Shown: positions 58,218-63,811 of the stretch, one piece after another | Numbering within the stretch: the first letter of the stretch is position 1 | Layout: each line of letters begins with the position of its first letter | From: Limisphaerales bacterium | Lineage (GTDB): Bacteria > Verrucomicrobiota > Verrucomicrobiia > Limisphaerales > UBA1100 | DNA length: 64,000 bases | Direction: 5' to 3' | Assembly (NCBI GenBank): GCA_014382585.1 | Contig: JACNJL010000036.1 | Span: 1 to 64,000 of the forward strand | Position numbers and translations under genes: made by a program | Notes under the pieces: generated by a model | The model's input: the letters and a program-made list of their open reading frames with translations, nothing else | What the model was told of the DNA's origin: nothing | Database searches by the model: none

Positions 58218-60110
58218 TTATTTTTCCGGCCGCAACACGCGCACATCGCCTTGGCGCAGTGTCACGCCGTCGCGATCCATCTTTTCCAGCAACGGAATCA
58301 AAATACGTCGCGTCGTTCCCAGCGCCTGGCGCAATTCGCTGGCCGTGGCTTGTGTGTGAGTGCGTAAATGTTTTTTCAGCAGCATCCGAAAGCGATTAAG
58401 CTGCCCCGCGCTCATTGCCAATTCGGGGCTGACCTCAATCACTTCGCCCGCTTCGATGAGAAACCGCAACGCCTGCGAGCCTTCGGAAGTGCCGGCCAGA
58501 ATTTTACGCGCGGGCGGATCCGCCTCCGCAAGTGCCTTGCGAATTTTTTCGCCCGCCGCGCGCAAATGCGGCGGCAATGCCGGTTTATGCGTGAGCGCTA
58601 CTAAATATTTTGCCTGCCGCTTGAATCCGTTTTGGCAAAGACTGTCCAGCAATTCCGCAAACACATCGCCAATCGGAAACGCCTTTTGCGCCAGTGGCCG
58701 CAGTGCTTCCATCGCCAATCCCGGTCGTTCGGGATGGGCGCGGTGTTCCGCGTTCACCGCGGTCGCCATTGCCTCGCGCGCTTTTTTCCAACGCGATGAA
58801 TCAGCAATCCAATCGCCGGCGGCCAGTGCAGTCTCGGCGGTGGACAGCGCGGTAACGGCGGCGTCAATTTCAGCAGTGGAAAAAGTGGAGGGGCGAAGCA
58901 GTGCATTTCGCCGCGCAATGCCATCGCGCGCGAGTTGTGAGGTAATCCAAGCTTCGGCGTCTTCGTGCGCGTCGGCGCGGGTTTGCAAAAAAAGTTTGTG
59001 GGCCGCCGAGCGCAAGCCTTGTCGATTGCCCTGTGTATCGAGCACTCGACCGCCGGCGAGCGTGGCGCTTTCGGGCCAGTTGCGGATGACGATGCGATCG
59101 CCGGGCCAAACGCACGCGGGGTGTTCGAGGCGCAGTTGGGCGAGTTGCGTCGCGCCGGGTGCGAGGGTTTTGCCTTCCACCAAAACCAATCGCGCGGGCC
59201 AATGGCCGCTGCCGTGGTGCACGCGCACGCGGGTGTCGTTGCGTAGCGGGGCGCATTCCTGGCCGAGGCGCGCGGAGCGTTCGAGCAACACGTCGAGCGT
59301 GCGCGTGGTGGCGGCGAGCGTGGGGAGGGTGATGGTCGCGCCGCGAGGCAATTCGCCTCGCGCGGCATCGGCGAGATTCAGCGCGGTGCGCGTGCCGGGC
59401 TGCGCGGTGTCCTGCGCGCGGTTGTGCGATTGTAATGTGCGGATGCGCGTGTCGCGTCCGGGTGGATGCGCGGTGACGGTGTCGCCCTTGCTCATTGTGC
59501 CGCCGGTGAGCGTGCCGGTGACGATGGTGCCAATGCCTTGCAGCGAGAACACGCGGTCGACGGCGAGACGCGGTTGGCCGTCGTCGGTGTGGGGCGGCAT
59601 TGTTTCGGCGGCGGCGGTGAGAGCGGTTTTTAATTCGTCCAAACCGGTGCCGTTGTGGGCGGACACCGGAATGATTGCGGCACCGGCAAGCGGACTGTTT
59701 TGCAATTGCTGGCGGATTTCGTTTTCGCGCGCGGTGGTGTCCTCCACGAGGTCGGCTTTGGTGAGGGCCACCACGCCGCGCGTTGCGCCGAGGTAGCTGA
59801 GAATTTGTAAGTGCTCTTCGGTCTGCGGCATCCAGCCGTCGTCCGCCGCAACGACAAGCAGCGCGAGATCAACCGCGCCAACGCCGGCCACCATATTTTT
59901 CACAAAATCCTGATGGCCGGGCACGTCCACGATGCCGAGGCTGTGCCCGGACAATTCAAGATGCGCGAAGCCGAGATCGATGGTGATGCCGCGCAGTTTT
60001 TCTTCCGGCAAACGGTCGGGATCATTGCCGGTGAGCGCCTTCACGAGCGCACTCTTGCCGTGGTCAATATGACCGGCTGTGGCGAGGATGGCGTGGCGGG
60101 AGGGCATCAA
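58218..60110 (-). CDS. selB: Selenocysteine-specific elongation factor SelB
   Basis: A 630-residue translational GTPase. The P-loop is GHIDHGKS (residues 13-20), followed by DVPGHQDF and TKAD, then EF-Tu-like domains II/III. The C-terminal ~250 residues contain the winged-helix modules that bind the SECIS hairpin, including ATASELRQALGTTRR near the end. Length matches bacterial SelB (about 610-640). It delivers Sec-tRNA to the ribosome at UGA codons with a downstream SECIS. It is the last gene of the sel operon and overlaps the transglutaminase gene by four bases. Confidence 0.95.
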   Translation of the reverse strand: MMPSRHAILATAGHIDHGKSALVKALTGNDPDRLPEEKLRGITIDLGFAHLELSGHSLGIVDVPGHQDFVKNMVAGVGAVDLALLVVAADDGWMPQTEEHLQILSYLGATRGVVALTKADLVEDTTARENEIRQQLQNSPLAGAAIIPVSAHNGTGLDELKTALTAAAETMPPHTDDGQPRLAVDRVFSLQGIGTIVTGTLTGGTMSKGDTVTAHPPGRDTRIRTLQSHNRAQDTAQPGTRTALNLADAARGELPRGATITLPTLAATTRTLDVLLERSARLGQECAPLRNDTRVRVHHGSGHWPARLVLVEGKTLAPGATQLAQLRLEHPACVWPGDRIVIRNWPESATLAGGRVLDTQGNRQGLRSAAHKLFLQTRADAHEDAEAWITSQLARDGIARRNALLRPSTFSTAEIDAAVTALSTAETALAAGDWIADSSRWKKAREAMATAVNAEHRAHPERPGLAMEALRPLAQKAFPIGDVFAELLDSLCQNGFKRQAKYLVALTHKPALPPHLRAAGEKIRKALAEADPPARKILAGTSEGSQALRFLIEAGEVIEVSPELAMSAGQLNRFRMLLKKHLRTHTQATASELRQALGTTRRILIPLLEKMDRDGVTLRQGDVRVLRPEK

Positions 60111-61048
60111 TCCTTGAGAGTCAAGCGCTTGAATTTGAAATTTGCTTTCACGGGCACTGTCTTTCCATCCACTTCGAGATGCGGCCCAAAAAAGTAATTA
60201 AACGAACCGGCCTTGGGTGCGGGCATGACAGTAATGTCTCGGCCGCGGCTAAGTTCGAGGCGGTTGGCGGGATGATGCCCGAAATAATATCCGGCCAGTT
60301 TGGGCTGTTTGTCGGCCTCACTGATGTCCACCGGCGTCCATTTGCCGTTGGCGAAAAATTCCGCCCAACAATGATAGCCGCTGATGGCGCCCGCGTTGCG
60401 ATCAGCTGGAATCGTGAAGCCGATGGCGAAGCGCGCGGGAATGTTTGCCGCGCGGCAAAGCGCGATGAAGTAGGCGTGGTAATCAGTGCAGTTTCCAGTG
60501 CGCGCGTTGCAGGCGTAGAGGGCATCGCCGCGTCCCCAGCCTTTGCCGGTTTTATCGTAACGCATATGCGCGAGCACGTGGTCATAAAGCGCCTTGCCGC
60601 GCGCGCGATTGCCCGGAGCATTCGCGGTAATGCGCTTGGCGATGGCGGTGAAACGCGGGTCAAGCGGCACGAGTTTTTCGGCCTTGAGATGCAGCGCCGC
60701 ATTGCCGGCTTCGGCGTGAGCGGCTTTTTCTTTGCGCGTGACTTGGTAGCGAATGGTGATGCGTTTGCCGCTGTCGGCGGGTGTGGGGTGTAGCACGAGA
60801 ATTTCATTTTCGCCGGTGACATCACGCGTTTTGCGCCACGGCACGGGTGAGGTGATATCGCGTGTTTGAAATTTTTGAAAGGCATCGCCGCCCGCAAGCG
60901 GAACCCAAAGCGTACCGTTGGCGGGGAGCTTGGGCAGCGCCATTTCATAAATTAATTCAAAATGGTCCGTGCCGCGCACGATTGTTTTGTCCGCCGCGAA
61001 AATAGGCGAAAGGGTCAATAGTGTGATGAGTGTCAGTTTTTTTTTCAT
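60107..61048 (-). CDS. Exported transglutaminase-like protein inside the sel operon
   Basis: A 313-residue protein with signal peptide (KLTLITLLTLSPIFA). The transglutaminase-core catalytic triad is readable: Cys in TGNCTDYHAYF near residue 195, His in SGYHCWAEFF near 230 and Asp in WTPVDISEAD near 245. Such bacterial proteins act as proteases or amide-bond enzymes as well as crosslinkers. It overlaps selA upstream and selB downstream by four bases each, so it is translated with the Sec machinery. It has no known role in selenium metabolism, which makes its position odd. Confidence 0.88.
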   Translation of the reverse strand: MKKKLTLITLLTLSPIFAADKTIVRGTDHFELIYEMALPKLPANGTLWVPLAGGDAFQKFQTRDITSPVPWRKTRDVTGENEILVLHPTPADSGKRITIRYQVTRKEKAAHAEAGNAALHLKAEKLVPLDPRFTAIAKRITANAPGNRARGKALYDHVLAHMRYDKTGKGWGRGDALYACNARTGNCTDYHAYFIALCRAANIPARFAIGFTIPADRNAGAISGYHCWAEFFANGKWTPVDISEADKQPKLAGYYFGHHPANRLELSRGRDITVMPAPKAGSFNYFFGPHLEVDGKTVPVKANFKFKRLTLKD

Positions 61049-62385
61049 AAAAGAGATTTGTGGATGGACTGGAGTAGTTGCTTTTCCTGCTCAGGAAAAA
61101 TGGTCCGAAAGTCGAGGCGAAAACGTTGGCCGCTGATGACGCCAATCACCGGCGTGGGCGCGCGGCGTAAACGCGTGGCGAAATCTTTAAGGTTCATTTC
61201 GTTGGGCACCAAATTGAGCGTGATGCTCGGGAGAGTCGCCTGCGGCAACGCGCCACCGCCCACTTGGGATTCGCCTTCGGCGACGGCGACGGACACGGGG
61301 AGTTTCGCCAATGCTTTGGCCAGTTTGGTGGCGCGGCGTTTGAGTGTTTTTGGGTCGGCTTGGAGGCTATGGTTTAAGGGCAGCGTGTGGCCTTCACCGC
61401 GCAGATATTTTTCTGCGGCGGATTGCAGCGCGGTGAGGATAAGTTTGTCGCAGCGCAGTGCACGGAAGAAGGGATGTTTTTTCAGGGCGGCGATGTGTTT
61501 GGCTTTGCCGGCGATGATTCCCGCTTGCGGGCCGCCGAGGAGTTTATCGCCACTGAAACAAACAAGGGCTGCGCCGCTTTTGATGACCTCGCGTGGAGTG
61601 GTTTCGTGATGGCCGTTGGCCCAGTTTTCGGTGTCGGTCAGCACGCCGCTGCCGAGATCTTCAACGAAGAGAGTGCGGTTTTTTTTTGCGAGCGCGGCGA
61701 GTTCGCGGCGGTCGGGCGTGGCGACAAAGCCGTCCATAAAAAAATTACTGCGATGGACTTTGAGAATGAGGCCGGTGTTTTTGTGGGTGGCCTTGGCGTA
61801 GTCGTTGAGCGTGGTGCGGTTGGTGGTGCCGACTTCGCGCAGTTGAGCGTCAGTGGTTTCGAGGATATCCGGAATGCGAAAGCCGCCGCCGATTTGCACG
61901 AGTTCACCGCGCGAAATAATGACTTCTTTTTTGTCTGTCGTGAAGTGGCGCAGAATGAGCACGAGTGCGGCGGCGCAATTATTGGTGACCATCGCGGCCT
62001 CCGCGCCGCAGAGTTCGGCAAGGCATTGCTCGACGTACGCGGCGCGTTTGCCGCGTCGGCCGGTGGCGAGGTCGATTTCGAGATTGGTGTAGCCGCTGTT
62101 GTCCGGCGGCGCGATGGGCGCGCGGCCGAGGTTGGTGTGGACGACCACGCCGGTGCCGTTGATGACCGGTTGCAATCGCGACAGCGCGAGGTCTTCCAAA
62201 CGCAGTCGAAGGCCGGAAATAATTTCGGCGGGTTCGGGAATGGATTTTGATTTGCGCAGCAAAGCCAATTCCGCGCGAATGGTGGCCACGACGAGCGGGC
62301 GGGGCAGGGCGCAGTCGGCCACCGCGTTGAACAGCGTGTCCACGCCGGGGATGGCGCGCAGGTTTTTGTTTTTCGCCTTGGCCAT
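61045..62385 (-). CDS. selA: L-seryl-tRNA(Sec) selenium transferase SelA
   Basis: A 446-residue PLP enzyme. It has the family stretch VINGTGVVVHTNLGRAP near residue 74, VEQCLAELCGAEAAMVTNN, the PLP-contacting VEDLGSG and the Schiff-base lysine Lys281 in CFSGDKLLGGPQAG. It converts Ser-tRNA(Sec) to Sec-tRNA(Sec) using selenophosphate from SelD. Length is close to the E. coli enzyme (463). The start overlaps the selD stop by one base (TAATG) and its stop overlaps the transglutaminase start, so it lies in the same operon. Confidence 0.96.
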   Translation of the reverse strand: MAKAKNKNLRAIPGVDTLFNAVADCALPRPLVVATIRAELALLRKSKSIPEPAEIISGLRLRLEDLALSRLQPVINGTGVVVHTNLGRAPIAPPDNSGYTNLEIDLATGRRGKRAAYVEQCLAELCGAEAAMVTNNCAAALVLILRHFTTDKKEVIISRGELVQIGGGFRIPDILETTDAQLREVGTTNRTTLNDYAKATHKNTGLILKVHRSNFFMDGFVATPDRRELAALAKKNRTLFVEDLGSGVLTDTENWANGHHETTPREVIKSGAALVCFSGDKLLGGPQAGIIAGKAKHIAALKKHPFFRALRCDKLILTALQSAAEKYLRGEGHTLPLNHSLQADPKTLKRRATKLAKALAKLPVSVAVAEGESQVGGGALPQATLPSITLNLVPNEMNLKDFATRLRRAPTPVIGVISGQRFRLDFRTIFPEQEKQLLQSIHKSLL

Positions 62386-63422
62386 TAGTTGACGGTGATG
62401 AGGGGTTCGGTGGCTTCGGTGAGTTGGCCGAAGGATTTCAATTCCAATTCGGCAGTGGCTTCGTGGAATGCCGCGAGGCCCTCGGGAGCCACGGCGACGA
62501 GCAGGCCGCCGCTGGTTTGGGGATCGCAGAGGAGGGCGCGTTGGGCATCGGTGAGCGGGCCGAGGTGGTGGCCGTAGCTGTCGAAATTGCGATCAGTGCC
62601 GCCGGGGGCGCAGTCCTCGGCGATATAATGTTCGGTGTTCGGCAGGCGCGGCACTTTGGCGCTGTCGATGATGGCGCTCACGCCGCTGCCTTCGCACAGC
62701 TCGGTGAGATGGCCGAGCAGGCCGAAGCCGGTCACATCGGTCATCGCCTTCACGCCGGGCAACGCGCTGAGGGTGCTGCCGATTTGGTTGAGCGCGGTCA
62801 TTTGGTCGATGGCGCGTTGGACGTCGGCGTTCTCGGCGATGCCGCGTTTTTGGGCGGTGGTGACGAGGCCGACCCCGAGGGGTTTGGTGAGGAACAGCTC
62901 GCAATCGACTTCCGCGCCGTCATTGCGTTTCAAATCGGTGATGGCGACTTGGCCGGTGACCGCGAGGCCGAAAATCGGTTCCGGCGCGTCGATGCTGTGA
63001 CCGCCCGCCAGCGGGATGCCGGCGCGTTCGCACGCGGCGCGGCTGCCTTCGAGTACACGACCGGCCACGGCGGGCGGCAGTTTTTCAATCGGCCAACCGA
63101 GCACCGCAATGGCCATCAACGGTGTGCCGCCCATCGCGTAAATATCGCTGATGGCGTTGACGGAAGCGATTTGGCCGAAGTCGAAGGGATCGTCCACGAT
63201 GGGCATGAAAAAATCCGTGGTGCTGATGACTGCTTGGCCATTGCCGAGATCGAACACGGCGGCGTCGTCCTTGGAGTCGTTGCCGACGAGCAGCTGCGCG
63301 CTCGGCGCGGCCTTGCCGGCGACGCTGAGAATTTCGTCGAGCACCTTGGGCGAAATTTTGCAACCGCAACCGGCGCCGTGGCTGTATTGGGTGAGGCGGA
63401 TGGGATTGGTGGAATCAGTCAT
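62385..63422 (-). CDS. selD: Selenophosphate synthase SelD (Cys form)
   Basis: A 345-residue enzyme making selenophosphate from selenide and ATP. The N-terminal catalytic loop is [13 protein letters not shown]; the active-site position (Cys19) is Cys, with Cys21 and Lys22 following, so this SelD is not itself a selenoprotein. ATP/metal-binding motifs ([31 protein letters not shown]) and the FGLLGHL and [10 protein letters not shown] segments are intact. The start is 15 bases from the tRNA-Sec 3' end, so the two are probably on one transcript. It supplies both SelA and the downstream Sec pathway. Confidence 0.96.
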
Positions 63423-63437
63423 GGCAGAAATAAAAAT

Positions 63438-63533
63438 TGGCGGAGAGGGTAGGAATCGAACCTACCTCGGCCCGTTCACGAACCGACAACGGTTTTGAAG
63501 ACCGCGGGGACCACCAGGCACCCTTCACTCTCC
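63438..63533 (-). tRNA. selC: tRNA-Sec (anticodon TCA)
   Basis: A 96-nucleotide tRNA read on the minus strand. The 5' end GGAGAG pairs with CTCTCC before a discriminator G and an encoded CCA (63438-63440). The anticodon loop CTTCAAA gives anticodon TCA (63496-63498), which reads UGA. A long variable arm and a TTCGATT T-loop between GTAGG and CCTAC are present. The extra length and UGA-reading anticodon distinguish it from tRNA-Ser and tRNA-Trp. It lies between the selW-like gene and selD. Confidence 0.95.
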
Positions 63534-63583: not shown

Positions 63584-63811
63584 CTACAATCGCTGGATGG
63601 ATTGCAGCACGGCGTTGGGCTCCGGGAAGGTTCCCGTTTCCCGCTTGGAATACACCAGTTGATCATCGGCTGTGACCTCGAACACTCCGCCGGAACCGGG
63701 TATCAGTTCCAATGACGAAATGCGCTGCTTCAGCTTCAAAAGTTGGTCCGCCAAACTGACGGCCTGCGGCTCGTAATTTCAAGCCGCGCAATATTCAATG
63801 CGCACCTTCAT
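63584..63811 (-). CDS. SelW/Rdx-family selenoprotein with in-frame TGA (Sec)
   Basis: A 75-residue thioredoxin-like selenoprotein. The frame starts at ATG 63811 and runs to TAG at 63584-63586, with one in-frame TGA at codon 11 (63779-63781). Read as Sec, the start is MKVRIEYCAAUNYEPQA, the CxxU redox motif of the Rdx (SelW/SelT/SelH) family. Downstream it keeps the family PGSGGVFEV and YSKRETGTFP segments, so conservation on both sides of the TGA argues against a stop. Rdx proteins are small redox proteins whose natural partners are mostly unknown. The tRNA-Sec and selDAB lie immediately downstream on the same strand. Conventional gene calling would miss this gene. Confidence 0.93.
63748..63781 (-). 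promoter_or_regulatory. Candidate bacterial SECIS downstream of the TGA
   Basis: Counting the U of UGA as +1, a short stem can form between CCGC (+13 to +16) and GCGG (+31 to +34). Alternatively GCC (+19 to +21) pairs with GGC (+30 to +32) around an 8-base loop beginning GU. The GU-starting loop and its distance (about 18 bases after UGA) fit the bacterial SECIS consensus, but both stems are short, so the exact structure is uncertain. Confidence 0.45.

What the first reader, a model, noticed from the sequence alone, without database searches (positions are those of the whole stretch)
63584..63811. Selenoprotein of the SelW/Rdx family hidden by an in-frame TGA
A 76-codon frame has TGA at codon 11 within YCAA-TGA-NYEP, exactly where Rdx selenoproteins carry CxxU. 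Family motifs GSGGVFEV and YSKRETGTFP follow in the same frame up to a TAG stop. Automated annotation would leave only a spurious upstream stub or nothing. The gene sits directly beside tRNA-Sec and selD, a compact pairing of a selenoprotein with its own decoding genes.
Basis: partly seen in the sequence, partly recalled or inferred. Interest (0 to 1): 0.85.

Follow-up and report, generated by a model that had tools for sequence, protein, structure and literature searches.

The report
Ordinary bacterial SelW selenoprotein, confirmed
A marine-type Verrucomicrobia bacterium carries a small redox protein whose key residue is selenocysteine, read from an in-frame TGA next to the genes that make selenocysteine decoding possible; the gene is real, but it belongs to a well-known family.

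Summary
Confirmed. On the minus strand, 63811→63584, lies a 75-residue Rdx/SelW-like protein (MKVRIEYCAAUNYEP…GSGGVFEV…YSKRETGTFPEP) with TGA at codon 11, at the Sec/Cys column of CxxU. It matches PF10262, TIGR02174 and NF041051 above their cut-offs. TGA is kept in all 30 closest relatives read, downstream dN/dS is about 0.10, and two order-level relatives carry TGC (Cys) at that column. A hairpin 22 nt after the TGA fits the bacterial SECIS model: its stem covaries, four of its codons show no synonymous variation among the 30 relatives, and it has decayed in both Cys versions. The gene heads a same-strand cluster selW–tRNA-Sec–selD–selA–transglutaminase-like–selB, conserved across the bacterial family. 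The genome also encodes FdhA and probably several peroxiredoxin/thioredoxin-like selenoproteins. SelW-like CxxU proteins are the most abundant selenoproteins in marine metagenomes, so this is a new member of a known kind. Function (thiol/selenol oxidoreductase) is inferred from family and fold.

The parts
63584..63811 (-). selW-like (Rdx family) selenoprotein gene, 75 residues with Sec at position 11, TAG stop
   Evidence: translation; PF10262 E 3.8e-22; TIGR02174 and NF041051 above cut-off; dN/dS 0.10 downstream of the TGA
63779..63781 (-). in-frame TGA (Sec codon 11 of the CxxU motif)
   Evidence: TGA in 30 of 30 closest relatives read; Cys TGC in two others
63748..63762 (-). bacterial SECIS hairpin CCGUC-AGUUU-GGCGG with a GU tip, apical G 22 nt after the TGA
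   Evidence: 98.9% of cells paired, 3 pairs with changes on both sides, 0/500 shuffles as high in covariation score; synonymous diversity 0 at codons +6,+7,+8,+10
63438..63533 (-). tRNA-Sec (selC), anticodon TCA
   Evidence: ARAGORN; RF01852 67.4 bits at 63442-63533
62385..63422 (-). selD, selenophosphate synthetase
   Evidence: TIGR00476 E 1.1e-128
61045..62385 (-). selA, Sec synthase; its ATG overlaps the TAA of selD
   Evidence: TIGR00474 E 1.7e-141; overlap read
60107..61048 (-). transglutaminase-like protein inside the sel cluster, role unknown
   Evidence: PF01841 E 2.8e-25; same place in the relatives' clusters
58218..60110 (-). selB, Sec-specific elongation factor
   Evidence: TIGR00475 E 2.3e-99

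Best explanation
The frame is a real gene for a SelW-like selenoprotein of the Rdx family. When the ribosome reaches UGA at codon 11, the SECIS hairpin just downstream in the mRNA recruits SelB carrying Sec-tRNA-Sec, and selenocysteine is inserted, giving a CxxU active site at the start of the first helix of a thioredoxin-like fold. The protein most likely acts as a small thiol/selenol oxidoreductase, cycling between reduced and selenenylsulfide forms, with unknown partner. Gene, TGA conservation, hairpin and decoding genes are shown; Sec insertion and the redox role are inferred from the family.
For: Family: PF10262 E 3.8e-22, TIGR02174 65.2 bits over a 34.2 cut-off and NF041051 90.4 over 88. 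Fold: AlphaFold2 model pLDDT 89, beta-alpha-beta-beta-beta-alpha; best solved matches are all SelW/Rdx proteins, 3dex TM 0.90, with mouse SelW 2npb lower at TM 0.64. Codon: TGA in 30 of 30 relatives read, from 96% down to about 49% identity; TGC in two others. Selection: family dN/dS 0.10 downstream. SECIS: fitting the published model (PMC13188914). Decoding genes: tRNA-Sec, selD, selA and selB on the same strand just downstream. Co-occurrence with tRNA-Sec in the order: 29 of 33 TGA-selW genomes against 18 of 84 others.
Against: No expression, selenium labelling or mass-spectrometry data. The hairpin of the window sequence alone is not remarkable: 13% of synonymous recodings give one at least as stable; its support comes from comparison. 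The ATG has no clear Shine-Dalgarno sequence. Biochemical function of bacterial SelW-like proteins is not established.
Confidence: 0.97

Rival explanations
1. The gene is a pseudogene or truncated SelW in which Cys codon TGC/TGT mutated to a true stop.
For: A Cys-to-stop change needs one base.
Against: TGA is fixed in 30 relatives down to about 49% identity with no TAA or TAG; purifying selection continues past it, dN/dS 0.10; the hairpin covaries.
Confidence: 0.01
2. TGA is read as another amino acid (Trp or Cys) throughout the genome, or by unassisted read-through.
For: The frame is open when TGA is read as a residue.
Against: 18 of 42 long mechanically called ORFs of the window end in TGA, selA among them; a complete Sec decoding set lies next door; the column is Cys in relatives without TGA, not Trp.
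Confidence: 0.01
3. The selW-first arrangement makes the TGA and hairpin mainly a selenium-sensing leader that tunes expression of the downstream selC-selD-selA-selB genes, in addition to making SelW.
For: selW is first on its strand, tRNA-Sec follows 50 nt after its stop, and the order is conserved across the family.
Against: In several relatives outside the family selW lies away from tRNA-Sec with the same hairpin, so the hairpin is explained by Sec insertion alone; no terminator-like element was found between selW and selD.
Confidence: 0.05

Closest known systems
SelW-like / Rdx family selenoproteins of bacteria (PF10262, TIGR02174; 427 Sec forms in GOS, PMC2398784)
   Same: Length, CxxU motif, in-frame TGA, SECIS just downstream, thioredoxin-like fold.
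   Different: Only in lineage; sequence 44% identical to the best solved relative 3dex, which carries CTQC.
NF041051 SelTWH_Campy (Campylobacter-type SelT/SelW/SelH family (seleno)protein)
   Same: Scores 90.4 bits over an 88 cut-off.
   Different: Score barely over the cut-off and found in another phylum.
fdhA next to selA-selB-selC in Proteobacteria (PMC1794560)
   Same: A selenoprotein gene beside the genes that decode it.
   Different: Here the partner is selW, tRNA-Sec lies between it and selD, and it is not the only selenoprotein of the genome.

Membership tests
Rdx / SelW-like (PF10262, TIGR02174) | profile score above curated cut-off | tested here: met
   PF10262 78.7 bits over 22.6; TIGR02174 65.2 over 34.2, with Cys in place of Sec
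Rdx / SelW-like (PF10262, TIGR02174) | CxxC or CxxU at the N-terminal active site | tested here: met
   C8-A-A-U11; C8 and position 11 invariant (Cys/Sec) in alignments
Rdx / SelW-like (PF10262, TIGR02174) | thioredoxin-like fold of SelW proteins | tested here: met
   AlphaFold2 pLDDT 89; Foldseek 3dex E 4.4e-8 TM 0.90, 2fa8 TM 0.92
Rdx / SelW-like (PF10262, TIGR02174) | thiol/selenol redox activity | not testable with these tools
   needs enzyme assays
Bacterial selenoprotein gene | SECIS hairpin 16-37 nt after UGA, 3-9 nt loop with G in the first two places, stem 4-16 bp, MFE at most -7.5 (PMC13188914) | tested here: met
   22 nt, 3-5 nt loop beginning with or next to G, 5-6 bp; fold of 45 nt -10.3 kcal/mol, though the 15-nt hairpin alone is -5.9
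Bacterial selenoprotein gene | Sec/Cys exchange among homologues at the UGA | tested here: met
   TGC in L061/L072 and L073, both without an intact hairpin
Bacterial selenoprotein gene | genome encodes selA, selB, selC, selD | tested here: met
Bacterial selenoprotein gene | selenium present in the protein | not testable with these tools
   needs 75Se labelling or mass spectrometry

The most novel reading that the evidence does not exclude
The selW-selC-selD-selA-selB arrangement, conserved across a Verrucomicrobia family, is a feedback circuit in which Sec insertion at the first gene reports selenium supply and tunes expression of the decoding genes behind it.
Probability: 0.05. Interest if true: 0.55.

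Novelty: new member of a known kind. Interest (0 to 1): 0.22.

Why it matters
It adds a clean, well-supported SelW-like selenoprotein and its sel gene cluster for a little-studied marine Verrucomicrobia lineage, and gives a set of relatives in which Sec-to-Cys change goes together with loss of the SECIS hairpin. Standard ORF calling hides such genes.

Tried and rejected
'Only selenoprotein in the genome' was considered and rejected: FdhA and peroxiredoxin/thioredoxin-like frames with TGA at motif positions were found. A single-sequence test of the hairpin against synonymous recoding was not significant (13%) and is not used as support. Conservation of a UxxU thioredoxin-like protein was looked for in 20 relatives and not found. 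An AhpD-like (CMD) selenoprotein was looked for in the genome and not found.

Full report
Observation. Read on the minus strand, 63811 to 63584 gives MKVRIEYCAAUNYEPQAVSLADQLLKLKQRISSLELIPGSGGVFEVTADDQLVYSKRETGTFPEPNAVLQSIQRL followed by TAG, with TGA at codon 11 (63781-63779). tRNA-Sec with anticodon TCA lies at 63438-63533 on the same strand and selD at 62385-63422.

Family. With Cys in place of Sec the protein matches Pfam Rdx PF10262 (78.7 bits, cut-off 22.6), TIGR02174 CXXU_selWTH (65.2, cut-off 34.2) and NF041051 (90.4, cut-off 88). Solved relatives by sequence are 3dex, 2fa8, 2oka and other Rdx proteins. An AlphaFold2 model from 20 relatives has mean pLDDT 89; its best structural matches are the same proteins, with TM-scores about 0.90-0.93, then MIEN1 and mouse SelW at lower scores (0.72 and 0.64 by query length).

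TGA conservation. Among 117 genomes of the same genus, family and order, 34 have a match. In the 30 read out, codon 11 is TGA in all, never TAA or TAG, and the frame continues to the same end. Two order-level relatives have TGC at the column (G054 = L061/L072, G036 = L073). A scan of species genomes added Planctomycetes, Latescibacterota and Binatia MAGs with TGA at the same column. In the window's family, mean dN is 0.068 and dS 0.656 over codons +1 to +60 after the TGA, ratio 0.10.

SECIS. Twenty-two bases after the TGA is the apical loop of a hairpin, CCGUC-AGUUU-GGCGG here and CCGUC-GGUCU-GACGG in others. Codons +6, +7, +8 and +10 show no synonymous variation among the 30 relatives while the remaining codons average 0.43; none of 200,000 random sets of four codons is as low. 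The serine AGT at +8 goes with leucine TTG at +9 (19 rows), and glycine GGT with CTG (11 rows), without exception in those rows. On a wider set of 30 distinct sequences, 98.9% of cells are paired, three pairs change on both sides, and none of 500 shuffles reaches the covariation score; the alternative apical pairing gives 99.4%. L060 and L074, which seem to use other hairpins, were left out of that count; L063 and L065 break one pair each. The element meets the published bacterial SECIS model (PMC13188914). In both Cys versions the hairpin is lost: one has no qualifying hairpin, the other only a weak different one. The hairpin of the window sequence by itself is not statistically special (13% of synonymous recodings are as stable), so the claim rests on comparison.

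Neighbourhood. On the same strand follow tRNA-Sec, selD, selA, a transglutaminase-like gene and selB; selD/selA, selA/transglutaminase and transglutaminase/selB overlap by 1 to 4 bases. The whole order recurs in nine relatives whose contigs reach far enough (L034, L035, L036, L038, L041, L042, L044, L045, L049). Outside the family, tRNA-Sec is still near selW in some genomes and not in others. Genomes with TGA-selW have a long, high-scoring tRNA-Sec in 29 of 33 cases against 18 of 84 others, Fisher p 3e-11. The threshold (at least 56.5 bits and 90 nt) was chosen after seeing the table because RF01852 also hits what appear to be serine tRNAs, and the test ignores relatedness; the four exceptions are fragmented or incomplete assemblies.

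Rest of the selenoproteome. The same genome has an FdhA with NCSRAUHAPTVAGL, a peroxiredoxin with TPGU, a Prx-like protein with TGGU, and TlpA/Prx-like proteins with UGGC and ULTU. So selW is one of several, and UxxC/UxxU Prx-like proteins are themselves known (PMC9312934).

What it is and how it works. A SelW-like selenoprotein: UGA recoded to Sec by SelB and the hairpin, giving a CxxU redox site. Gene, conservation, hairpin and decoding genes are shown; Sec insertion and redox activity are inferred. SelW-like is the most abundant prokaryotic selenoprotein family in the GOS (427 Sec forms) and Sargasso Sea data (PMC2398784, PMC1088965), and SelW genes missed by annotation have been reported (PMC4607533). 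The finding is correct and ordinary: a new member of a known kind.

Noticed in passing
L076 (G000:C28:49500-52500), match C28:50425-51693 +: Formate dehydrogenase alpha-like frame with in-frame TGA in NCSRAUHAPTVAGL, followed by a GCCGGTCTGGCGGC hairpin sharing the GGTCTGGCGG stretch of the selW element.
   Followed up: partly
L078 (G000:C37:38360-38710 -): TlpA/AhpC-TSA-like protein with two TGA codons in the motif place (YFWMEYULTURAHWP), a candidate UxxU selenoprotein; not found in 20 relatives.
   Followed up: partly
L066/L080 (G000:C58:91190-91573 -), L077 (G000:C37:30245-30622 +), L079 (G000:C48:55972-56403 +): Peroxiredoxin or thioredoxin-like frames with TGA at TPGU, TGGU and UGGC positions, probable further selenoproteins of the genome.
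   Followed up: partly
window 60107-61048 -: Transglutaminase-like gene lodged between selA and selB, overlapping both, and kept there across the family; no known role in selenium use.
   Followed up: no
L074 (G015), L075 (G054), L071 (G039): A second, divergent TGA-containing SelW-like subfamily (30-36% identical to the window protein), with its own hairpin after the TGA.
   Followed up: partly
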